IMG/VR virus record: IMGVR_UViG_3300007512_000010
Coordinates: 1 to 64,000 of that record
Strand: one strand, 5' to 3'
Origin: a virus
Length of the DNA stretch: 64,000 bases
Shown: positions 2-23,836 of the stretch, in pieces
Numbering within the stretch: the first letter of the stretch is position 1
How the letters are laid out: every line of letters begins with the position of its first letter
The notes under the pieces: model-generated
The model's database searches: none
What the model was told of the DNA's origin: nothing
Seen by the model: the letters and a program-made list of their open reading frames with translations, nothing else
Program-made: the position numbers and the translations under genes

Positions 2-952
2 GAGGATTATCGAATTACAGCGGCTGAGGGCCTAGAGGATATTCAGGGAATTCGATTGGCTCGGGACGCCTCGGCAAACCGGTTTGATAGTAATCGTCAG
101 AGCATCCTTAGGGGAGCAAGAGAAGCTTCCGAGATGAGTGGGGGTAGCTGGCGTTATACGAATAGGCTTAAACAAGCTGCCGAGAGATACCACACTGGGC
201 GAGGATCATCAACACGCGCTGGCCGTGGCCGGGAAGGGCGGAGCCTGGAGTATAGCGAAGATTGGCATATCGCTGGTAGGCAGGATTTCATGGATACCAT
301 CCAAATCCGCCTGAGAGGATCAGCGCCCGACGCCGAACCCGAAGATAGACGAGCCGCTATTGATGCTGGTGGCATCATGGATATGGATGACTTCTCTAGG
401 CTGTCCGCAGAGTTGTTGGAAGAAGATGATGCGGGCCTTCGGGATCTTGGTCAGGTGGCTGCACAGGCTGGCCGTTACCGACGAGCCTTCCGTACACGGG
501 GAGGAATGGGTAAAGGACGAGATCAGGTAACAGTGGCTGAGGCACTAGGAATTCGATTTACTGGCTCCTCGGCTACTAACGACAGAGCTTTCCTTCGTAA
601 TGAAGACGGCGGCGTCATGTCTATGCAGTTGGAAGGCCAACTAAGGACAATGGCCCGAGATGCTTTACGGGCTACGTCACCAGATGGTCAAGAGGTCACC
701 AACTCTCAGATCGAAACCCGTATGGGTCAGATGATGAGCGCTATCCGAAGCGGACAGGATGATGGTTACGAGACCCTTACCAGACTTCTGTCTACTCAGG
801 GCGCACCGAGCAATCCCAATGCGAGTGCTAATGCGCCTGGGGGTGCGGGTAATACTAGCCAACTGAGTGCACAAAACGCAGCACTTGCTGGTGAGGTCCA
901 GACGTTGATCTCGACCATCCGCTCAATTAACACACAGACAAGTGGGGGCTAA
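2..952 (+). CDS. Unknown virion-region protein, 5' end cut off by window
   Basis: The reading frame is open from the first bases of the window, so the true start lies upstream. A TTG at 56 is not a convincing start. The visible 316 residues are hydrophilic and rich in Arg, Ala and Gly, with no membrane segment. An internal repeat can be seen: a stretch near bases 14-60 (ITAAEGLEDIQGIR) recurs near 523-560 as VTVAEALGIR, and both copies share the DNA strings GGCTGAGG and GGAATTCGATT. The C-terminus (about the last 35 residues) is Ser/Ala/Gln-rich and probably helical. The next gene starts two bases after the stop, so they are probably co-translated. I do not recognise the family. Its position before probable ejected proteins suggests an internal or structural virion protein, but that is inference. 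Confidence 0.75.
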   Translation, partial: EDYRITAAEGLEDIQGIRLARDASANRFDSNRQSILRGAREASEMSGGSWRYTNRLKQAAERYHTGRGSSTRAGRGREGRSLEYSEDWHIAGRQDFMDTIQIRLRGSAPDAEPEDRRAAIDAGGIMDMDDFSRLSAELLEEDDAGLRDLGQVAAQAGRYRRAFRTRGGMGKGRDQVTVAEALGIRFTGSSATNDRAFLRNEDGGVMSMQLEGQLRTMARDALRATSPDGQEVTNSQIETRMGQMMSAIRSGQDDGYETLTRLLSTQGAPSNPNASANAPGGAGNTSQLSAQNAALAGEVQTLISTIRSINTQTSGG

Positions 953-1320: not shown

Positions 1321-3375
1321 ATGGCCACTAAGGAAGAAATACACCGCTTAGCGGACAAGAAGGGCATCCCTTGGGATAATGACCCTAAGTTCAAGAAGTG
1401 GTCTAAGGGCCTTACGGGCACAGCCTGCTTGGACAAGATGTCTCCGAAGCAGCTTGCTAGAGTAAAGAAAGCGTTATTAGCGGCTAGAGCTAGTAAAGAG
1501 AAAACGGCACTAGCTAACGAGACTAAAGAACATGCACTCATGGGTGCTGGCGCTACTGGTGCACTAACCGGGGCCAAGAAATTCCAGTTAGGAGATTTCA
1601 CTGGTAGGTATACGCTTTATCATGGGACTGACCCCCAAACTGCCGCAAGAATTAGAGCGGAAGGGCTCCTCCCGAAAGGGGCTACTGGCCAAGGGGGCAG
1701 TATCAGCAACATCCTCGACCCTGCTACACAGGGTAGGGGGAAGAACTTAGTCTTCGCCACCAATAGGAGCGGTGGGCTACTTAGCTCTATACACCCACTG
1801 GGGGGAGTAGGAACCGCTCGAACCTATGCGGCGCAGCAAACGGTAATAAAGAAGTATCTCGACAGAGGATTGTCCCCCAAAGAGGCCGTACAAAAGGCAA
1901 GAATAGAACTAGGGATGAACCCTGGGCAGTTCCATACCAAAGGTAAAGTAGTAAAAATGCGTGTCCCTCTAGAGGAGATGCGTGCTGCTGGTAGGATAGT
2001 CCCGAACCCCGAGGTGGTTGATCGGATAGCCGACACCAAACTCATGCATGGCGAGGGATCGGCTCTTCATCGGCTCAATAGGTTCTTCTCTGAGCGGATG
2101 ATGGGTGAGAAAGGCGGTACGTACGCCATTAAAGGCGGAGTTCCAACTAAGTACATCCCTGGGTCTGACGACTATAGTCGAGTCACACTAAAAGAGGTTG
2201 CTAAACATATAAGAGCAAACCCAAGGCTTGTTGCTAGGGGTTCTGGTTCTATCGCTTTGGGTCTCGGTGGGACTGCTTTGCTAGCGTCTCAACTAAAAAA
2301 GCGGTCGGACAGAATCAAAGCGAGCAAGGAGAAGACAGCCGGTAGGCTTGCCGAGGTAATTAAAGCCCTAAAAGGGATGCCTAAGGATGAAGCGGCTGTC
2401 ACCGCGCTTGGCGTGGTCGCCCCAGCGCCAGGAACAAGCGTTGTTTTCCCGGCAGTGTACAAAGGTGTTAAAAGCACAATCAAACATGGCCCCCCTGGAT
2501 CTTCACAGCGCGGGATGCACGACGCTATGAAGAAGTTGTTGGCGCAAAAGCAGGCAGACAAGGATTGGGCAGACCTCCTAACTTGGAAGCTAGGTTCTGT
2601 TACCAAGATGGCAGCGACGGAGAGGGTGCCTATTCCTCGGTTTGAGATAGATATGGACGCTATCATGGCACCCCTGCGGGATAGTCTAAATGAGATCACT
2701 ACATCCGCAAAGCCCAAGAAAGCACCTAAGGTAGATCTAAAAGACATCACTGTTGAGCCTAAGTATCGTGGGCGTACCTGGGCTGGGGGCACAGTCATTT
2801 GGAGGATGAAGCACAAGGGCAAAGAGATTGGCAGCATCACTACAAAAGGCAATCAAGTAAGTTTATCTGGTCTTGATGAGGCTTACCGAGGCCAAGGGCT
2901 TGGTCGGCATATGTACAAAGAAGTCTTACGGAATATGCCGGAAGGCAAGATGTACAGCGACACAGTCTTGTCTGACCAAGGAAGGCGTGCGTGGCGGTCT
3001 CTTCATAATAAGGGGGACGCTAAGGTTCTTCGACAACGACAGTGGCTCGGTGTATCGCGTAGTCCGACGAACTTTGGAGGTAGCCCCCAGCACTTTAATA
3101 CCGGGCTTCGGGCTCACTATCGGGCACGCATCCCCAAGGACCAGATGGCGAAACTTGTCGCCGGATCTCCTGAAGCGATTATTCGTTCAAAGATAGCGCC
3201 AACGCTTGGGGAGAACGTTAGACGGATTGGTACAAAATCGCTTATAGGCGCTCTTGCCGCCTCTTATCTAGGTGCTGCTGGTTACGGTATGTACAACGAG
3301 CTTAAACCTAAAAAGAAGCGTAAGACAAAGCAAGCCTCTGGCATGTGGGCTGTTCTGACTGAGGGGGCCGCATGA
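1321..3375 (+). CDS. Multi-domain protein: ADP-ribosyltransferase-like + GNAT acetyltransferase-like
   Basis: This 684-residue protein has an AGGA ribosome site just upstream. Residues 1-55 form a small basic helical domain (IHRLADKKGIPW). Residues 97-283 look like an ADP-ribosyltransferase of the H-Y-E/Q class: LYHGT (His101), GLLP, VFATN near 144-148, a Tyr at 169, FHTKGKVVKMRVPLEE at 204-219 and a closing GGVPTKYIPG at 272-281. A Gly/Ala-rich hydrophobic helix at 308-325 leads to a basic linker and KASKEKTAG (333-341). RASKEKTAL also occurs at 56-64. Residues 475-580 contain a GNAT acetyl-CoA loop, YRGQGLGRHMYKEVL (522-536). A second hydrophobic helix at 640-658 is followed by a lysine-rich tail with KTKQASG. 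Transfer of ADP-ribose or acetyl groups to host proteins is likely from family knowledge. T4 Alt is a precedent for a virion-packaged ART. Targets are unknown. The 3' end overlaps the next gene by four bases (ATGA). Confidence 0.8.
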   Translation: MATKEEIHRLADKKGIPWDNDPKFKKWSKGLTGTACLDKMSPKQLARVKKALLAARASKEKTALANETKEHALMGAGATGALTGAKKFQLGDFTGRYTLYHGTDPQTAARIRAEGLLPKGATGQGGSISNILDPATQGRGKNLVFATNRSGGLLSSIHPLGGVGTARTYAAQQTVIKKYLDRGLSPKEAVQKARIELGMNPGQFHTKGKVVKMRVPLEEMRAAGRIVPNPEVVDRIADTKLMHGEGSALHRLNRFFSERMMGEKGGTYAIKGGVPTKYIPGSDDYSRVTLKEVAKHIRANPRLVARGSGSIALGLGGTALLASQLKKRSDRIKASKEKTAGRLAEVIKALKGMPKDEAAVTALGVVAPAPGTSVVFPAVYKGVKSTIKHGPPGSSQRGMHDAMKKLLAQKQADKDWADLLTWKLGSVTKMAATERVPIPRFEIDMDAIMAPLRDSLNEITTSAKPKKAPKVDLKDITVEPKYRGRTWAGGTVIWRMKHKGKEIGSITTKGNQVSLSGLDEAYRGQGLGRHMYKEVLRNMPEGKMYSDTVLSDQGRRAWRSLHNKGDAKVLRQRQWLGVSRSPTNFGGSPQHFNTGLRAHYRARIPKDQMAKLVAGSPEAIIRSKIAPTLGENVRRIGTKSLIGALAASYLGAAGYGMYNELKPKKKRKTKQASGMWAVLTEGAA

Positions 3376-5846
3376 GCAAATCCGATAATAACGATAGTGC
3401 TGCTCCCGCATTAGTGGGTGGAGTAGCGGGCGTACTTCCCTTTGCTGGGGCAGTTGGTGACCGGAATGTAATGAGCCCCGCACAGGGTCCACAGGTTAAA
3501 TCGCTTAAGCAGTTGGCTAGTAAGGCCAAGCCCGGTGATGTTCTTATGGCTGGAGCGCCAGGAACAACTGTCCGAGGAGCCTTCAATAAGGCGTTTATCA
3601 ATTTAGGTATTGGTCGACCTGCTGCGTATCACCCCACTATTGTGGAAGGCATTTCTCCTGATGGTCGCCTTACTATTTTGGAGCACGGGCCAAAGGGTGG
3701 TTGGCAACGCAAAACATTATCGGCTAATAGCGCTTCAAGCCTAAGCCTACTTAGACCAAAAGATGGAACGCGTGCCTTAGGCACCGTCCAAACTGCCCAA
3801 CGATACGTCGCTGCCAATGAAAGCTTGGGCAAAGCCCTGGCAGCTAGAGGGTTGTCACCTGAGCAGGTGACTGCTGTACAAAAGAAGGCGTACTCTCACC
3901 GGTTAAATCCGGCCATCGGCTTTAGAGAACTCTTTTTACCTAAGGTTAGTGAGACAGGGCTAAAGGTTCGTGCCCAGCGCAAGGGGGCTGATCAGGCTCT
4001 TCTACACTTTGAGCAAAACATCGACAACATTGCCGATGAGCTTGCTGGCAAGGTGAAGGCTGGAAAGGGCATTAGTGTTTCTGACCTCAAGTGCCTTGGT
4101 GGTGTGTGCACAACGACAGCCGCTAAAGCAGGAGTTCCGGTAAGAGGTGGAACAACACTGTCTCATGCTTCCCCACGGGATATCCTTGCTTCCGGCCAAC
4201 TTACGAATATTGGTCATAAGCCTGCGGAGGGCTCAACTAGATTGTCCCGCAGGATTTTCCACAAGGCACTTCAGCATGGACCCACTGCTGTTCGTGCTGG
4301 CGCTGGGATTGGCTTGGGAACTTTGGCTTACAAAGGGGCCAAGAAGCTTTGGGGTAATGACGCTAGTAAAACAGCGGCTGTTGCTGCCGCCGCTCCTGCT
4401 GCCGCTGGCGCAAGCTACGGTGGTGAGCTTACTGCTGCGGGTGTTGGTGCTGGCTTGATAGCCCCAAGGGCCACGCAACCATTATTTAGTAAAGAAGTAA
4501 CTCGGTACACACCGGGTAAGCCCATTAATATTTATTACACTGATCCTGCACGGGGTAGAGGACACTTCCAACAAGCGCAGAATATTGCCAAGGCACTAGA
4601 GGCTAGAGGGGTTCCCTACAATCTAGTCAATGTAGAAGAGAAGTTCACGTCGCCAGCAGCAAGAAAGAAGCTGATTGAAACCTACGATAAAGTACGAAGG
4701 GGCGAGATATCTCAAGGTGAGTGGAAGCGGGCTTGGACCCAGTTCTATGCGAAAGAGGTAGATAAGGGTGCTTTGAAAGCACACGCTAAAGCGGGTGGTG
4801 GAACCATCCTGACCAATCCCGGACTTGCTCCTTGGATGCGTGGCGCAGGACCGGCGAACGTTGTTATCTCTGATCCTAGTAAGGCGATGATGGAAACGCC
4901 TTTAGGGACCTCTTGGTCTAGAGCGCAAGACATTAAGTATGTGCCCAAGGGGGTTGAAGGCTATACCGGACAACATGTTCGAAGAGTAGCTAACGTCCCA
5001 GTTGACCCAGGCATGTTCCAGAGAGGAACTACGCCCGTCTTTGGTGCGGGAACAGCAAACGTTACTGTCTCTGGTGGTGGCACAGGAACAGATGTAGTCA
5101 AGCAGGTTCAGCAACTACTTCAGTCAAAGACACAAACCATTGGTGGTAAGCCAATCACCATCCACGCGTTATCGGCAAATATGGCCAAACGCGACCCTAA
5201 ACAGTTTGCTGCGCTGCAGGATCTTGCCAGACAAAATCCGGGCAGGATCAAGGTGCATGGGCTGTTGGAGCCAGAGCAGATCAGGAATGTATTCCAACAG
5301 GCCGACATGAATGTTCTTAGGCCTCATGGAACTATGGGCACTGAGGCTATGCTGGCTAAGAAGCCTATGATTCTTACTGCGCGTGGCGGTGTTGGACCCG
5401 GAGGAAATCTCGCGTGGGCACCGGGCATGAACCTTTCCAATGCACGGAGGTTTCAGCAGTTAACTGATGCACCTATGGCGGGACTTGGTGGGCAAACGAC
5501 ACAAGCGAACCTTGGTCAAGTGTTTGATGAGAGCCTTGGAAAGACAGACGAGCTTGCTAAAGGTGTTCAACGAGGAGCTTCTGGAGTAAAAGACACTGCT
5601 ACTGGAATCGTTGATGATATTATTAAAAACCCTAGAGTAAAGGCTCGTGGAAGGATACCCTTCTCCAAGCCGGTCGCTATGGCTGGTGGTGGTTTGATAG
5701 CCGCTGCTGGAGCTAAAGCGCTGTGGGATAGACATCGAGCTAAAACTGCTGAGGTTTATGAGCTAGATGCTGATATGACTGTCGAAGGCTACCAGAGAGG
5801 GCTGAATAAGGCCTCTGCTGTTATGTCCCTTATTAGTGAGGAATAA
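3372..5846 (+). CDS. Multi-domain protein: permuted papain-like hydrolase + GT-B glycosyltransferase-like
   Basis: This 824-residue protein is translationally coupled to the gene before it. Residues 40-260 look like a circularly permuted NlpC/P60 (YiiX/LRAT-type) domain: KPGDVLMAG (53-61), a His in YHPTIVEG (His87) and, much later, a Cys in GGVCTTTA (Cys246; Cys241 is close by). Residues 383-720 fit a GT-B fold of the MurG/diacylglycerol glucosyltransferase type: INIYYTDPARGRGHFQQAQ (385-403) matches the N-terminal glycine loop. VTVSGGGTG (564-572) matches the start of the second Rossmann domain. RPHGTMGTEAMLAKKPMIL (650-668) matches the nucleotide-sugar binding motif. Gly/Ala helices near 309-322, 335-363 and 768-784 are followed by ASKTAAV (331-337) and RAKTAEV (789-795). 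Acceptor and donor are unknown. Amidase, peptidase and acyl-transfer activities are all possible for the first domain. The GT call is the stronger of the two. Confidence 0.78.
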   Translation: MSKSDNNDSAAPALVGGVAGVLPFAGAVGDRNVMSPAQGPQVKSLKQLASKAKPGDVLMAGAPGTTVRGAFNKAFINLGIGRPAAYHPTIVEGISPDGRLTILEHGPKGGWQRKTLSANSASSLSLLRPKDGTRALGTVQTAQRYVAANESLGKALAARGLSPEQVTAVQKKAYSHRLNPAIGFRELFLPKVSETGLKVRAQRKGADQALLHFEQNIDNIADELAGKVKAGKGISVSDLKCLGGVCTTTAAKAGVPVRGGTTLSHASPRDILASGQLTNIGHKPAEGSTRLSRRIFHKALQHGPTAVRAGAGIGLGTLAYKGAKKLWGNDASKTAAVAAAAPAAAGASYGGELTAAGVGAGLIAPRATQPLFSKEVTRYTPGKPINIYYTDPARGRGHFQQAQNIAKALEARGVPYNLVNVEEKFTSPAARKKLIETYDKVRRGEISQGEWKRAWTQFYAKEVDKGALKAHAKAGGGTILTNPGLAPWMRGAGPANVVISDPSKAMMETPLGTSWSRAQDIKYVPKGVEGYTGQHVRRVANVPVDPGMFQRGTTPVFGAGTANVTVSGGGTGTDVVKQVQQLLQSKTQTIGGKPITIHALSANMAKRDPKQFAALQDLARQNPGRIKVHGLLEPEQIRNVFQQADMNVLRPHGTMGTEAMLAKKPMILTARGGVGPGGNLAWAPGMNLSNARRFQQLTDAPMAGLGGQTTQANLGQVFDESLGKTDELAKGVQRGASGVKDTATGIVDDIIKNPRVKARGRIPFSKPVAMAGGGLIAAAGAKALWDRHRAKTAEVYELDADMTVEGYQRGLNKASAVMSLISEE

Positions 5847-5847
5847 G

Positions 5848-6363
5848 ATGAACCCTTTAGAGAAATACACGGCCAAGAAGAAGCTTATCGAGAAGCTTGC
5901 CGACATAATGGTTGGTCCACGGAATGACAAGGGTGCTGTAACGACCGCTGGCGGAATATTTATCGGCGTTCCCGGAGACAAGAAGGACCCAGGATACGGA
6001 GCAAAAACCCGGAAAGCGGCTGAGAGAATCTCCGAGCTTATAAAAGAGAAGGGTTCGATCCAACGTGCTAGGCAGGCATACGCCAAAGAGAACCCGTCCC
6101 ACTACATTACAGCGGCGTTTAAGCGCGAGAAGAAGCCCTCGTCAGGGTTCCTTGGGTACAAGAAGTTATTCGGCGGGAAGAAATATAAGTCTTCGGTAAG
6201 CTCGTACGCTGACCGGTCCAAAAAACCAAGGATTTTCGTACGGGCTGGCCAAAGTGCGGGCTACCAGCAAAGATCTCTCTACAGAGAGGTGGCCCGAGGT
6301 TTAAGAGACAACGAACTAAATCAACCCCACGTGGCTAAAAAAGACAGGGTGGTATACGTATGA
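5848..6363 (+). CDS. Unknown basic protein with LEKY-x-AKKK N-terminus (171 aa)
   Basis: I start it at the ATG at 5848, not the in-frame GTG at 5836. GAGG at 5838-5841 is correctly spaced for the ATG, and the resulting N-terminus MNPLEKYTAKKKL matches two other small proteins nearby (at 7013 and 7327). The protein is strongly basic and rich in Lys, Arg, Ser and Tyr. It has no catalytic motif and no clear membrane helix. Residues 95-130 (RKPSSGFLGYKKLFGG-like region) and the C-terminal YREVARGLRDNEL suggest a folded domain of unknown type. It overlaps the next start by four bases. The function is unknown. Shared N-terminus and company suggest a virion internal protein. Confidence 0.75.
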   Translation: MNPLEKYTAKKKLIEKLADIMVGPRNDKGAVTTAGGIFIGVPGDKKDPGYGAKTRKAAERISELIKEKGSIQRARQAYAKENPSHYITAAFKREKKPSSGFLGYKKLFGGKKYKSSVSSYADRSKKPRIFVRAGQSAGYQQRSLYREVARGLRDNELNQPHVAKKDRVVYV

Positions 6364-7016
6364 GTACCCCAGAACAATACAACGAACACCAGCAAAAGCT
6401 GGGTCTATTTACAAGTAGTCAGGTTGCACATCTTGTCCGGTTTTGGCAGGAAAACCACAATCTCGAAGCAGATGGGTACTGTGGCCCCAAAACACAGGGT
6501 TCTCTTTTAGACGCTATGTACGACACTACCGAAGAGCCAAGTAGTCTTGGTGCTCTGGCGCTCAATGTAGCGATTGGAGAGATCGGTAATGGCGAAGAAG
6601 GAGGAAATAACTCTGGACAGCATGTGGCAAGATATCACGGAATCGATGATGACGGCGATGATGATGACGATGGTGCTTGGTGCGCTAGCTTTGTTAGTTA
6701 TTGTTGCCGCACTGCGGCTTCTCGGCTCGATATTGATCTTCCCTTTCGCTCTTCCCGTGGTGCTAAGTCGTTGTATAAGAAGATAGGCGAGGCAGGCAGC
6801 TACACAACCAATCCGTTACCGGGTGATGTTGTGTGTTGGGATCGGGGCAAACCGGGTTCTTGGCAAGGCCACATAGGCTTCGTCGAAAAGGTAGAAAACG
6901 GTATTCTATACACTATAGAGGGTAATACAGGTCGTTTCCCTTCAACTGTACATCGAATTAAACATGACTTAGATAGGGAAGACCGCCTTATCGGATTTGC
7001 GAGGATGCCAGCATGA
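6360..7016 (+). CDS. Peptidoglycan-binding + CHAP/NlpC-type cysteine hydrolase (endolysin or tail lysin)
   Basis: This 218-residue protein likely cuts cell-wall peptide bonds. Residues 12-52 form a PG_binding_1 repeat (VRFWQENHNLEADGYCGPKTQ). Residues 65-215 are a cysteine amidase/peptidase core: WCASFVSYCC carries the nucleophile Cys108, GDVVCW (155-160) is the usual second strand, HIGFVE gives His171 and IEGNTG (186-191) the third polar residue. Just before the nucleophile lies an Asp-rich loop, DDDGDDDDDGAWC (residues 96-108), reminiscent of the calcium-binding D-x-D-G of CHAP lysins but longer. There is no signal peptide or membrane anchor, so release would need a holin, or the protein could act as a tail-tip lysin. 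It overlaps both neighbours by four bases, which ties its expression to the putative ejected proteins rather than to a separate lysis unit. Confidence 0.88.
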   Translation: MSTPEQYNEHQQKLGLFTSSQVAHLVRFWQENHNLEADGYCGPKTQGSLLDAMYDTTEEPSSLGALALNVAIGEIGNGEEGGNNSGQHVARYHGIDDDGDDDDDGAWCASFVSYCCRTAASRLDIDLPFRSSRGAKSLYKKIGEAGSYTTNPLPGDVVCWDRGKPGSWQGHIGFVEKVENGILYTIEGNTGRFPSTVHRIKHDLDREDRLIGFARMPA

Positions 7017-7327
7017 TGACTGCCTTAGAAAAGTATGCCGCTAAGCGAAAGCTTGCCGCCTTGCTCAAGGAAGCGAAGATCCCTGGCTGGGCTAAGCAGT
7101 TCGCAGTCCAAGATGGAAACATTATTAACATTATCAAATGGCCGAAGTCCAAGAGGTTACAGGCTAAGCTGAAGATGCTTCAGCGTGGTAGGGCTAACGC
7201 ACCCCGACACAGGAAAGGCGGATTTAACCCCTCCTTTGCAGGAAAGCCGGGGTCTGGAAAACCGGAGGGCGGTTGGCCAAAGGGTAGCATGATGGACGAA
7301 TGGCGAAGACAGGCGGGTAGACAATAA
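7013..7327 (+). CDS. Small basic protein with LEKYAAKRKL N-terminus (104 aa)
   Basis: It starts at ATG 7013 (a second ATG follows at 7016), with GAGGA at 7001-7005 and a four-base overlap with the lysin gene. The N-terminus MMTALEKYAAKRKLAALLKEA is closely related to those of the genes at 5848 and 7327. After residue 25 it becomes a Lys/Arg/Gly-rich, low-complexity, probably disordered or nucleic-acid-binding segment (RRGGFNPSF-like, PGSGKPEGGWPKG). There is no enzyme motif. It shares one base with the next gene (TAATG). The role is unknown; a virion-packaged DNA-binding or cargo protein is possible. Confidence 0.72.
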   Translation: MMTALEKYAAKRKLAALLKEAKIPGWAKQFAVQDGNIINIIKWPKSKRLQAKLKMLQRGRANAPRHRKGGFNPSFAGKPGSGKPEGGWPKGSMMDEWRRQAGRQ

Positions 7328-7614
7328 TGAACGCTCTAGAAAAATACGCCGCTAAGAAACACTTAGCGAAGGAACTCCAAAAGGTTGCCTTCCTCGGTGC
7401 TGTCATGAAGGGTGTGAAGGCCGCACGCCATGGCCTGACCCGCGCTCTTCCTCTCACCTCCCCTCTTTCTCGGGGCGCAACAAAGGCAACCGCTGCTGCA
7501 GCCGGGGCGACCGGTGGCGCTGCTGCTGTTGGCGCTGCTGGAAAGGCCGGTGACGCCGTGCTTCGTATGAAACGACGCTGGCAACCTGCGAAGCCACCTG
7601 CGGTGGGGAAGTAG
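7327..7614 (+). CDS. Small Ala/Gly-rich protein with LEKYAAKKHL N-terminus (95 aa)
   Basis: It starts with MNALEKYAAKKHLAKELQKVAF, the third copy of the shared N-terminal motif, here ending in QKVAF (a K-x-A). Residues 52-80 are almost entirely Ala and Gly with a few Thr and Val, so they form a weakly hydrophobic helix like those in the large proteins at 1321 and 3372. A basic tail (RMKRRW, residues 81-86) follows. This gives the order leader, Gly/Ala helix, basic end, which is a minimal version of the cassette found in larger proteins of the window. The stop is followed by an 80-base gap holding a candidate promoter. No function is recognised. Confidence 0.72.
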   Translation: MNALEKYAAKKHLAKELQKVAFLGAVMKGVKAARHGLTRALPLTSPLSRGATKATAAAAGATGGAAAVGAAGKAGDAVLRMKRRWQPAKPPAVGK

Positions 7615-20609: not shown

Positions 20610-21452
20610 ATGCGTCAGTTAGAGAAAACAGCCGTTAAACGGGGTCTTAGTACCTCGCTTGGGGCAAGGATTATTGACATTAACGGAGGCCCTCTGGAGA
20701 AAGAGGCGGCGAATGCTGTCGTGGAGGCCCTAAAGGGAACCTTCAGAGCAGCCCTAAAAGAGGGCAAAAAGACCGTCGCTGTTATTAAGGGAAAGAACGT
20801 CGGCTCTGCCCAAAAGAACCTCTCAAAGTCGCAGAAGAAGTTTAAGGCTCATGAGACCAAGCGGGTTGCTGATTCCAAGAAGACCTCTTTGAAGGAAAAG
20901 GTCTTCGGCAAGAGCAAGGCCCGAGAAGCTGACGAGGCGGCGAGCAAGCAGCGAACTAAGGATCTTATTGGTAAGATCAAGTCCAAGGGCGACAAGATTG
21001 ACGTCGAGAAAGCCCGAACTAAGAAGTACAGACGCGTTGCTGGCGCTGGCGTAGGTGTTACTGGCTTGGGTGCCATCGGTTTGGCCGCTAAGGGCGGCAA
21101 ATCCAGCCAAGAAGATAATGCGCTCGCTAAGGCGGCTAGCGGTCGTTTGGCTGCTTGGCGAGAAGGTGCTGAGCAGTTTGCTAAGCGCGTTGTCGGCAGC
21201 AACCAGAAGGGTGCCAGAGAGGCACTAGAGACCGCTAAGTCAAAACGCCCTGTACCCAAAGCCAGAAAGAATAAAGCTGAGTTGGCGAAGGCTGAAAAGC
21301 GGCTTGCGAGCTACGACAAGAGGAGCGTAACGCCCAGAGAAGAGGCGCTCGCTGCTGAGGTGGCTAAGACGCGTAAAGCTCGGCTACAGACTGCTGTCGG
21401 TACGACTGGATTAGCTGCCCTTGGTCTCGGTGCGAAGAAACTTAGTGACTAA
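20610..21452 (+). CDS. Basic protein with two Gly/Ala helices and K-x-A motifs (280 aa)
   Basis: The start is well supported by CGGAGGAA. The protein begins MRQLEKTAVKRGL, a variant of the LEKYAAKK leader of the genes at 5848-7327, with LEKEA repeated at residues 29-33. Residues 45-140 are Lys-rich and probably helical. A hydrophobic Gly/Ala helix (143-160, AGAGVGVTGLGAIGLAA) is followed by a linker and LAKAASG (172-178). A second short helix lies at the C-terminus (260-275, AVGTTGLAALGLGAKK). The isoelectric point is clearly high. It fits an internal or ejected virion protein that can touch both DNA and membrane. The function is not recognised. Confidence 0.72.
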   Translation: MRQLEKTAVKRGLSTSLGARIIDINGGPLEKEAANAVVEALKGTFRAALKEGKKTVAVIKGKNVGSAQKNLSKSQKKFKAHETKRVADSKKTSLKEKVFGKSKAREADEAASKQRTKDLIGKIKSKGDKIDVEKARTKKYRRVAGAGVGVTGLGAIGLAAKGGKSSQEDNALAKAASGRLAAWREGAEQFAKRVVGSNQKGAREALETAKSKRPVPKARKNKAELAKAEKRLASYDKRSVTPREEALAAEVAKTRKARLQTAVGTTGLAALGLGAKKLSD

Positions 21453-21467
21453 GAAGCGCGTATAATT

Positions 21468-22367
21468 ATGGAGCTTGCCTTGAGTACCGACCCTGTAATG
21501 GATTTCCTGAAGTTCGCTGAACGCAGGACCCGTGTAAGTGCGCATACCCGGCGTACTGGTGGGAAGGTCGTTACCGTCGCAGAGCATGATCGGGCGACAG
21601 ATGACGAGGGGGCACCAACAGCCGCCGAAGCTGTTAGTGGCCACGAGCATCCGGAACTCCAACTCGATACTAAAAAGGCAAAAGAGTTGGAGATGTGGCA
21701 GGCGTGGAAAGATGGCGGAATGGATCCAAAGGATCTTGAACCGCTTCTTAAGAGCTTCCGACCCATGATTAGGTCCAAGTCGAACGTCTACAAAGGGAAG
21801 GTAAAGATGATTCCCGACTCAGCTATAGAGGCTGAGTTTCAACTTCGCTTTGTAGACGCCCTTCGGTCGTATGATCCGACTAAAGGTTCACTTGGGACCT
21901 ATGTGTACCGGTATCTAGACAAGTCGAAACGATTCATTGTCGAAAACCAAAACATCGGGCGCATCCCAGAGAACCGCGTTTACAAGCTAAAACTTTATAC
22001 GACGCGTAGAGATGAACTTACCGAGGATCTTGGTAAGATCCCCTCAGTATCAGAGATGGCTAAAAATCTCGGGTGGCCTCTTGCAGAGGCCAAGCGGATG
22101 GATGCCGAATTACGAAATGATCTTACTACGCAAGGATTTGAGGAAGATCCGTATGCTTTAACCCCGTCCAAGTCAGAGGAAGTTCTTCGTTTGGCGAAGT
22201 ACGAATTAACGGGTAATGAGCGTGCGGTGTACGAACACCTTACAGGGTTTGGGCGACCCCAACTTACGTCCACTAATGAAATCGCAAAGGCGTTAGGTAT
22301 GCCTGATTATCAAGTCAGTCGCCTCAAAAATGCCATTAAGAAAAAATTGGAGAGGTACCTACAATGA
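21468..22367 (+). CDS. Sigma-70-family RNA polymerase sigma factor (299 aa)
   Basis: Residues 88-160 match sigma region 2: LLKSFRPMIRSK, FVDALRSYDPTKG (128-140) and LGTYVYRYLDKSKRFI (142-157). Residues 164-215 match region 3: GRIPENRV, then LGKIPSVSEMAKNLGW (188-203). Residues 245-299 match region 4 with a helix-turn-helix: STNEIAKALGMPDYQVSRLKN (268-288). Residues 18-42 hold an unusual AHTRRTGGKVVTVAEHDR motif, not part of sigma factors. The protein would direct host core polymerase to phage promoters. Its place among virion genes suggests either late-gene control or packaging in the virion. The ribosome site is weak, and TATAAT lies right before the start. The stop overlaps the next start by four bases. 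Confidence 0.8.
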   Translation: MELALSTDPVMDFLKFAERRTRVSAHTRRTGGKVVTVAEHDRATDDEGAPTAAEAVSGHEHPELQLDTKKAKELEMWQAWKDGGMDPKDLEPLLKSFRPMIRSKSNVYKGKVKMIPDSAIEAEFQLRFVDALRSYDPTKGSLGTYVYRYLDKSKRFIVENQNIGRIPENRVYKLKLYTTRRDELTEDLGKIPSVSEMAKNLGWPLAEAKRMDAELRNDLTTQGFEEDPYALTPSKSEEVLRLAKYELTGNERAVYEHLTGFGRPQLTSTNEIAKALGMPDYQVSRLKNAIKKKLERYLQ

Positions 22368-23836
22368 CAAGCAAGCTGGCTAATGTAGCGAAAGTAAAGG
22401 CGCTCATGGCGAAAGGCATGGGAGCTAAAGAGGCTATTAAGGCCGCATACCCTGATTGGTCTGATGAGCAGGTTGCTGCTCTAGCTGCCAAGATGGGTGG
22501 CGGGGAAGAGAAGCAGGCGAGTAAGGCGACCTTCTCCCCTGCGATGGACAAGAGCCCTGCCCTTAAAGGCAAGCAGTCCAAGCTCCCTGACAGCATTCAA
22601 GCCGCTATTCTCAAGAAGAAGATGAAGAAGACGGCCAAGCTTAACGTCTCGGACATCGAGGATGAGATTGGTGCGTACTTTGGTGATAAGGATGAGGCTA
22701 AGGTTCGGAACCTGATTGGGAAAGCTCGGGCTAAAAGCTTCTCAATGCGCCACCCAATCCTTACTGGTATCCCGACGTTAGGGATTGCCCCCCACATGGC
22801 GAACGAGAAAGCCAAAGGGAAGATCCTACGCCAGCTTCTCCGAAGCGACCTAAAGCTGCGTAAGGCTCATGGAGCCAAACAGAGCAGAGCGCGTGCTGAT
22901 CGTATTGAGGCGCACAAAATGAATACAGAGCGTCTTAAGGCCACAGAAAAATCTCGTGCTGCTAGGCAGTACGCGATGGCAGCGGGTTCGATTGCATCCT
23001 CCGCTCTCGCACAACGCCAGCGGGAACAAGAGAAAAAGGGCTCCGTAAAGATCGCCAAGAGGGTTAAGTTAACCCAGGAAGAGAGAGATGCTTTGATTCC
23101 AGCCCAGATGCAGGGTCGGACGGACGATCCTCGCTCAAAGGAGCAGGTGATCAAAGACATCCATAAAAAGCGTAAGCAGATGAAAAGGAGAGGCGGTCTT
23201 GGCACCGGCACAAGCATAGCTGGTTTAGGGGCTTTGCTGGGTTCCTTCGTTCCGAAGAACCCTAAGGCACAGTTAGCGTTGGAAGCAGGTGGTCTTGCTA
23301 GTATGATTGCTGGGATAGGGCTGCAATCAAGCGCTAGAGGTAAGGCCCGCTCTCTTCACGGAGACAAGAAAACACTGCTAAACAAAATCATCCAAGAGCG
23401 TGGAAAGGGCAAAAAGAAGAAGGCTTCCGCAGTAGTACACATGGTTCCTGGACACGAGGTCTTGTTTACCAACGGCCTAAGCTTGGCGTCTGGAACGCTC
23501 TACACCCACTACATGGACAAGACCGCAGCCAGCCCGGTATTTCTCGCTAATCTAGGTAAGCGATTTGCTGGCTGGGGAGCTAAAGCTACCCCGCACATCA
23601 GTAAGGCCTGGGGTGGCGTGAAGAGCGGTGGTAGAGCGGTAGCAGAGGGTATTGAGAGCGGTGCCAAAGCAACAAGCGATGCGGCAGCAAGGAACTTCCC
23701 AGAAGCAGCTAAGAAGTGGGCTGCGATGCTTGAGCGTAATCCTGAGCTTGCCAAGACTCTCGCTTCTGCGAAGAAGAACTGGCGACCGCTTGCTGGCGGT
23801 GCTGCTGCTGGTGGTCTCGTAATGGCTGGAGATTGA
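22364..23836 (+). CDS. Large Lys/Arg-rich protein with hydrophobic segments and K-x-A motifs (490 aa)
   Basis: It is translationally coupled to the sigma gene. Residues 1-45 are a helical domain (VKALMAKGMGAKEAIKAAY, then PDWSDEQVAALAAKM). Four K-x-A sites follow: EKQAS (49-53), KKTAK (88-92), KKKAS (351-355) and DKTAAS (385-390). Residues 150-235 are an extended basic helix. Two hydrophobic, Gly/Ala-rich stretches lie at 278-297 and 303-324, and a third at 476-488 ends the chain. No enzyme signature is seen. It shares composition and motif set with the genes at 20610, 25332 and 27184, and is probably an internal or ejected virion protein. Confidence 0.72.
   Translation: MTSKLANVAKVKALMAKGMGAKEAIKAAYPDWSDEQVAALAAKMGGGEEKQASKATFSPAMDKSPALKGKQSKLPDSIQAAILKKKMKKTAKLNVSDIEDEIGAYFGDKDEAKVRNLIGKARAKSFSMRHPILTGIPTLGIAPHMANEKAKGKILRQLLRSDLKLRKAHGAKQSRARADRIEAHKMNTERLKATEKSRAARQYAMAAGSIASSALAQRQREQEKKGSVKIAKRVKLTQEERDALIPAQMQGRTDDPRSKEQVIKDIHKKRKQMKRRGGLGTGTSIAGLGALLGSFVPKNPKAQLALEAGGLASMIAGIGLQSSARGKARSLHGDKKTLLNKIIQERGKGKKKKASAVVHMVPGHEVLFTNGLSLASGTLYTHYMDKTAASPVFLANLGKRFAGWGAKATPHISKAWGGVKSGGRAVAEGIESGAKATSDAAARNFPEAAKKWAAMLERNPELAKTLASAKKNWRPLAGGAAAGGLVMAGD

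What the first reader, a model, noticed from the sequence alone, without database searches (positions are those of the whole stretch)
1321..3375. ADP-ribosyltransferase-like and acetyltransferase-like domains fused in one probable virion protein
Seen: LYHGT...GLLP...VFATN...Tyr169...GGVPTKYIPG in residues 97-283 and a GNAT loop YRGQGLGRHMYKEVL at 522-536, separated by a hydrophobic helix. Known: T4 packages the ART Alt in its head and injects it to modify host RNA polymerase. Inferred: this phage injects a two-headed protein that could place both ADP-ribose and acetyl marks on host targets. I do not know of this exact pairing.
Basis: partly seen in the sequence, partly recalled or inferred. 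Interest (0 to 1): 0.85.

Follow-up and report, generated by a model that had tools for sequence, protein, structure and literature searches.

The report
Phage ADP-ribosyltransferase-like plus acetyltransferase protein
A large uncultured phage encodes, among its structural genes, a 684-residue protein that joins a small shared front module, an ADP-ribosyltransferase-like part and an acetyltransferase part; it probably travels in the virus particle to modify the host, a kind of multi-tool protein that is already known.

Summary
The GNAT half is well supported: weak Pfam hits here, a stand-alone relative above Pfam's cut-off, and the R-x-x-G-x-G loop. The ART half is probable, not proven: no Pfam ART model hits it and its own AlphaFold model failed (pLDDT 43.5), but its first 40 residues (LYHGT..GLLP) resemble, far above shuffled controls, a stand-alone protein of seven related phages whose confident model (pLDDT 91) matches ART structures, DarT1 first. 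An acidic third catalytic residue is not evident. The pairing is not new: Iyer et al. 2017 describe phage polyvalent proteins in which a GNAT typically neighbours an ART, and Myxococcus phage Mx1 has GNAT, ART-PolyVal and NUDIX in one protein (found here). Virion location, cleavage and injection are inferred.

The parts
1321..3375 (+). 684-aa ORF: N-module, ART-like domain, linker, GNAT domain, C-terminal tail
   Evidence: no relative over its full length found
1321..1509 (+). N-module (residues 1-63), a shared domain ending in KEKTA
   Evidence: same module at the N-terminus of different proteins in G005, G008, G011, G020, inside a 1877-aa protein of G006, and inside 2.6-2.8-kaa polyvalent proteins L124, L126, L127; phrog_286 E 3.3e-5 for the G005 copy; GemA PF06252 only weak
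1588..2163 (+). ART-like domain (about residues 90-281): LYHGT 99-103, GLLP, VFATN, Tyr169, GGVPTKYI
   Evidence: hhalign to stand-alone ART family A8, prob 91, score 46.8 against at most about 22 in shuffles, aligned residues 96-135 only; that family is ART by profile and fold
2239..2295 (+). Gly/Ala-rich weakly hydrophobic segment, residues 307-325
   Evidence: sequence; below the hydrophobicity threshold used
2362..2535 (+). linker module (residues 348-405), homologous to the C-terminal part of an N-module protein in G005
   Evidence: phmmer E 4.6e-8
2731..3130 (+). GNAT domain (about residues 471-606) with acetyl-CoA loop YRGQGLGRHMYKEVL (2884-2928)
1495..1509 (+). KEKTA word 1, end of the N-module (residues 59-63)
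2326..2340 (+). KEKTA word 2, after the ART-like domain (residues 336-340)
2602..2616 (+). TKMAA word, before the GNAT domain (residues 428-432)
3325..3339 (+). TKQAS word, at the C-terminus (residues 669-673)
3372..5846 (+). next gene, 824 aa: an unassigned N-terminal domain (NlpC/P60-like by eye) plus a glycosyltransferase-like domain; fused around an N-module in G006
   Evidence: Pfam Glycos_transf_1 E 0.006, below cut-off
2..952 (+). C-terminal part of a large (1287-1404 aa in relatives) tape-measure-like gene
   Evidence: homologues in G005, G006, G008; the name tape measure is inferred from size and position
6360..7016 (+). CHAP-domain cell-wall hydrolase, conserved landmark of the zone
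   Evidence: PF05257 E 1.5e-12

Best explanation
The ORF encodes a polyvalent-type phage effector made late and, most likely, packed into the virion. Residues 1-63 are a shared module that marks or holds cargo. The ART-like domain (about 90-281) would transfer ADP-ribose from NAD, and the GNAT domain (about 471-606) an acetyl group from acetyl-CoA, to host molecules after injection. KEKTA-type words between the domains may be cut by the head maturation protease, so the two enzymes might act as separate pieces. Shown: the ORF, the module sharing, the GNAT assignment and the gene setting. Probable: the ART assignment. Inferred: packaging, cleavage, injection, targets and activity.
For: GNAT Pfam hits and a relative above cut-off. 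Local ART similarity far above shuffles, with the window ORF the best non-member among 2351 ORFs, E 0.0017. The stand-alone family fits ART structures: DarT1 in profile search E 2.4e-4, model pLDDT 91.4, all 50 listed Foldseek matches in the PDB ART-superfamily entries by name. N-module shared with other late proteins and with polyvalent proteins carrying SNF2, methylase and ddrB-ParB domains. Position between a tape-measure-like gene and a CHAP gene, an order conserved in G005, G006, G008, G011. Precedent for ART plus GNAT in phage polyvalent proteins and for virion packaging of ARTs in myoviruses (PMC9503650). KTA 24 times on the late strand against 9.6 +/- 3.1 in shuffles; GKEKIA invariant near the N-terminus of 13 distinct capsid proteins.
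Against: No full-length homologue, so the fusion cannot be tested for conservation. AlphaFold on the ART region gave pLDDT 43.5. ART-PolyVal (PF18760) and all other Pfam ART models miss it. Only residues 96-135 align to the stand-alone family. No acidic third catalytic residue evident. No virion proteomics. The role of K-x-A words as cleavage sites is untested.
Confidence: 0.55

Rival explanations
1. The ART-like domain is a decayed or non-catalytic NAD- or nucleotide-binding domain (for example one that binds NAD-derived immune signals), and only the GNAT is an enzyme.
For: No acidic residue evident near GGVPTKYI; the residue aligned with the E of IPPEAI is K here and R or K in several stand-alone relatives.
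Against: The strand-1 His (LYHGT) and a Tyr after the second-strand motif are kept; some ARTs use other third residues (general knowledge).
Confidence: 0.2
2. The protein is not in the virion but is made in the infected cell and modifies host or phage proteins late, or aids assembly.
For: No proteomics; the related stand-alone ARTs lie outside the late cluster, beside non-structural genes.
Against: Late-strand position in a zone flanked by virion genes; N-module shared with polyvalent proteins; literature on packaged phage ARTs.
Confidence: 0.2
3. The ART call is wrong: LYHGT..GLLP is a convergent motif in an unrelated fold.
For: No Pfam hit; failed fold prediction; only 40 residues align.
Against: hhalign score about twice the best shuffle; order of motifs fits the ART strand order; same kind of partner domain as in known polyvalent ARTs.
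Confidence: 0.2

Closest known systems
Phage polyvalent proteins with ART and GNAT domains (Iyer et al. 2017, PMC5512222)
   Same: ART-like and GNAT domains in one phage polypeptide, encoded with late genes, predicted to be injected
   Different: Here the ART is not matched by PF18760 and resembles a DarT1/KptA-like stand-alone phage family; only 684 aa; a distinct N-module
WNM70333.1 of Myxococcus phage Mx1 (1479 aa)
   Same: GNAT (PF00583 above cut-off) and ART-PolyVal in one protein; GNAT regions align at 33% over 54 residues
   Different: Has NUDIX and further regions, an ART of the ART-PolyVal family, opposite domain order (GNAT before ART), no N-module seen
T4 Alt
   Same: Idea of a head-packaged, injected ART (literature)
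   Different: Alt belongs to another ART clade (R-S-E, PMC5512222) and is not paired with a GNAT; no sequence link found
DarT and KptA/Tpt1 ARTs
   Same: Closest solved structures to the stand-alone relatives of the ART-like domain
   Different: No toxin-antitoxin or RNA-repair context here; similarity of the window domain itself is indirect

Membership tests
GNAT acetyltransferases | Pfam GNAT profile match above cut-off | tested here: inconclusive
   E 0.0029 whole protein, 0.00046 excised domain, both below cut-off; the relative in G027 is above cut-off
GNAT acetyltransferases | motif A acetyl-CoA loop R/Q-x-x-G-x-G/A | tested here: met
   RGQGLG within YRGQGLGRHMYKEVL 522-536; QGMGLG in the relative
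ART superfamily | ART fold (beta core) | tested here: inconclusive
   own model failed, pLDDT 43.5; the locally similar family has the fold
ART superfamily | His in strand 1 | tested here: met
   His of LYHGT aligned with the invariant His of the stand-alone family
ART superfamily | Tyr after strand 2 | tested here: inconclusive
   Tyr169 fits by motif order only; the region does not align
ART superfamily | third catalytic residue (E/Q/D) | tested here: inconclusive
   no acidic residue in GTYAIKGGVPTKYI; the position cannot be fixed without a model
ART-PolyVal (PF18760) | profile match | tested here: not met
   no match at E <= 10 in G000 or relatives, none
Polyvalent proteins | two or more disparate enzymatic domains in one polypeptide | tested here: inconclusive
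   GNAT firm, ART probable
Polyvalent proteins | encoded among late genes, with a domain shared with other polyvalent proteins | tested here: met
Polyvalent proteins | delivered into the host with the DNA | not testable with these tools
   needs virion proteomics or an injection assay

The most novel reading that the evidence does not exclude
This phage group keeps a bank of fast-changing virion cargo: unrelated enzymes are joined to one shared N-module (or to a LEKYAAK N-terminal tag) and separated by K-x-A sites that are cut by the same protease that matures the capsid, so that the N-module and tags act as a packaging code and the particle delivers the enzymes as separate pieces.
Probability: 0.25. 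Interest if true: 0.7.

Novelty: new member of a known kind. Interest (0 to 1): 0.42.

Why it matters
As a member of a known kind it adds a probable ART of another lineage (DarT1/KptA-like rather than ART-PolyVal) to the known ART plus GNAT pairing. The shared N-module gives a 63-residue handle with which to test how large phages load effector cargo into their particles.

Tried and rejected
Full-length and ART-only searches of viral contigs, genome contigs and phage records found no relative of the ART region; the plasmid hits (E 0.1-0.9, mostly lipid-transfer proteins) are chance. Pfam, PHROGs, NCBIfam and PDB by sequence on the ART region gave nothing usable. AlphaFold on the ART region with 8 distant rows failed, so that model was not searched. 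ART-PolyVal membership rejected. N-module: none found in genome contigs or phage records; GemA membership too weak to claim. Contigs reached through the CHAP gene beyond the close group did not hold the N-module.

Full report
Observation. The window is bases 1-64000 of a 118,970-base viral record.

GNAT half. Residues 483-539 match Acetyltransf_10 at E 0.0029 in the whole protein, and 0.00046 in the excised domain, below Pfam's cut-off. A stand-alone relative in phage record G027 shares 39% identity over about 82 residues, keeps the loop (QGMGLG) and passes the cut-off for PF00583 (23.4 against 20.7). A two-row profile finds almost only acetyltransferases in the PDB, best E 0.013. I regard GNAT as established at superfamily level.

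ART half. No Pfam ART model, ART-PolyVal included, finds it. Weak phmmer hits (E 0.005-0.02) led to a stand-alone family found in seven related phages: G001, G004, G005, G007, G008, G011 and G020. G001 is the same phage; its proteins are identical or nearly so over the shared region. Extended to 16 sequences, that family's profile finds DarT1 of E. coli at E 2.4e-4, and the remaining matches are Tpt1/KptA apart from one unrelated chain. Members hit PARP, KptA and DarT weakly in Pfam. Its AlphaFold model has pLDDT 91.4, and the 50 PDB matches listed by Foldseek are all ART-superfamily entries by name, DarT1 first at E 4.2e-4. Against this family the window domain scores 46.8 in hhalign and shuffles at most about 22, but only residues 96-135 align. 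Later motifs come in the order expected of an ART (VFATN, Tyr169, the strand-like VVKMRV, GGVPTKYI); that is my reading, not a test. An acidic third catalytic residue is not evident. AlphaFold of the window region failed at pLDDT 43.5. My estimates: ART fold about 0.75, active ART about 0.5.

N-module. Residues 1-63 recur at 40-70% identity in front of different C-termini: a short basic domain in G008, G011 and G020, and in G005 a tail homologous to window residues 348-405. In G006 it lies inside a 1877-aa protein, between the two domains that make up the next window gene, 3372-5846. It also occurs inside 2.6-2.8-kaa polyvalent proteins with SNF2-helicase, methylase, ddrB-ParB or lytic transglycosylase domains. 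Its place in the genome changes between relatives: after the 118-aa gene here, upstream of the tape-measure-like gene in G008, G011 and G020, downstream of the CHAP gene in G005. That is how a movable module behaves. In G020 a short ORF with a YYHGA start, weakly ART-like, lies two genes from the N-module gene (L035:195-761).

Setting. Gene order from the tape-measure-like gene through the CHAP, baseplate and tail genes is conserved, with a variable zone between. Small ORFs that begin with a LEKYAAK-like tag cluster near the CHAP gene: 3 of 93 ORFs here, all within 0.4 kb, and 6 of 202 in G005, all within 2.8 kb; in G008 and G011 some lie elsewhere. KTA occurs 24 times in late-strand proteins against 9.6 +/- 3.1 in shuffles. 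KEKTA stands at the end of the N-module and again after the ART-like domain, with TKMAA and TKQAS further on. TEKTA occurs three times in a putative core protein (114460-115113), and GKEKIA is invariant at residues 22-27 of 13 distinct capsid proteins, the most distant 47% identical. This suggests head-protease sites; no cleavage is shown.

Comparison. Iyer et al. 2017 (PMC5512222) state that in polyvalent proteins one GNAT family typically has the ART domain as a neighbour in the same polypeptide. Here I found an example in an isolated phage, Mx1 WNM70333.1, with GNAT, ART-PolyVal (E 2.8e-16) and NUDIX. ARTs packaged in myovirus virions are a described theme (PMC9503650). So the kind is known; the probable lineage of the ART and the N-module are the new parts.

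Noticed in passing
window 5836-6363, 7013-7327, 7327-7614; L035:773-1237; G005 98046-101318: Short ORFs with different bodies share an N-terminal tag like MNALEKYAAKKxLxxKLA and many cluster beside the CHAP gene; possible packaging tag.
   Followed up: partly
L004:12988-14178 (residues 22-27); L004:10460-11110: GKEKIA is invariant in 13 distinct capsid proteins and TEKTA occurs three times in a putative core protein; possible head-protease recognition word.
   Followed up: partly
L054:1259-2635 (G001 21259-22635) and L159-L177: A stand-alone DarT1/KptA-like ART family in large uncultured phages, without a model above cut-off in Pfam, NCBIfam or PHROGs.
   Followed up: yes
window 3372-5846; L046:12449-18082: The neighbouring protein joins an unassigned N-terminal domain and a glycosyltransferase-like domain; in G006 the N-module lies between them.
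   Followed up: partly
L178:2870-7306: A Myxococcus phage Mx1 protein annotated only as NUDIX hydrolase also holds GNAT and ART-PolyVal domains.
   Followed up: yes
L046:18986-20134; G011 122816-123733: Other cargo-zone ORFs carry HELGH-type zinc-peptidase motifs (by eye).
   Followed up: no
L002:4817-5812 (G000 68817-69812): A 331-aa VWA-like lipoprotein of a style seen in Myxococcota (from memory); a possible hint to the host.
   Followed up: no
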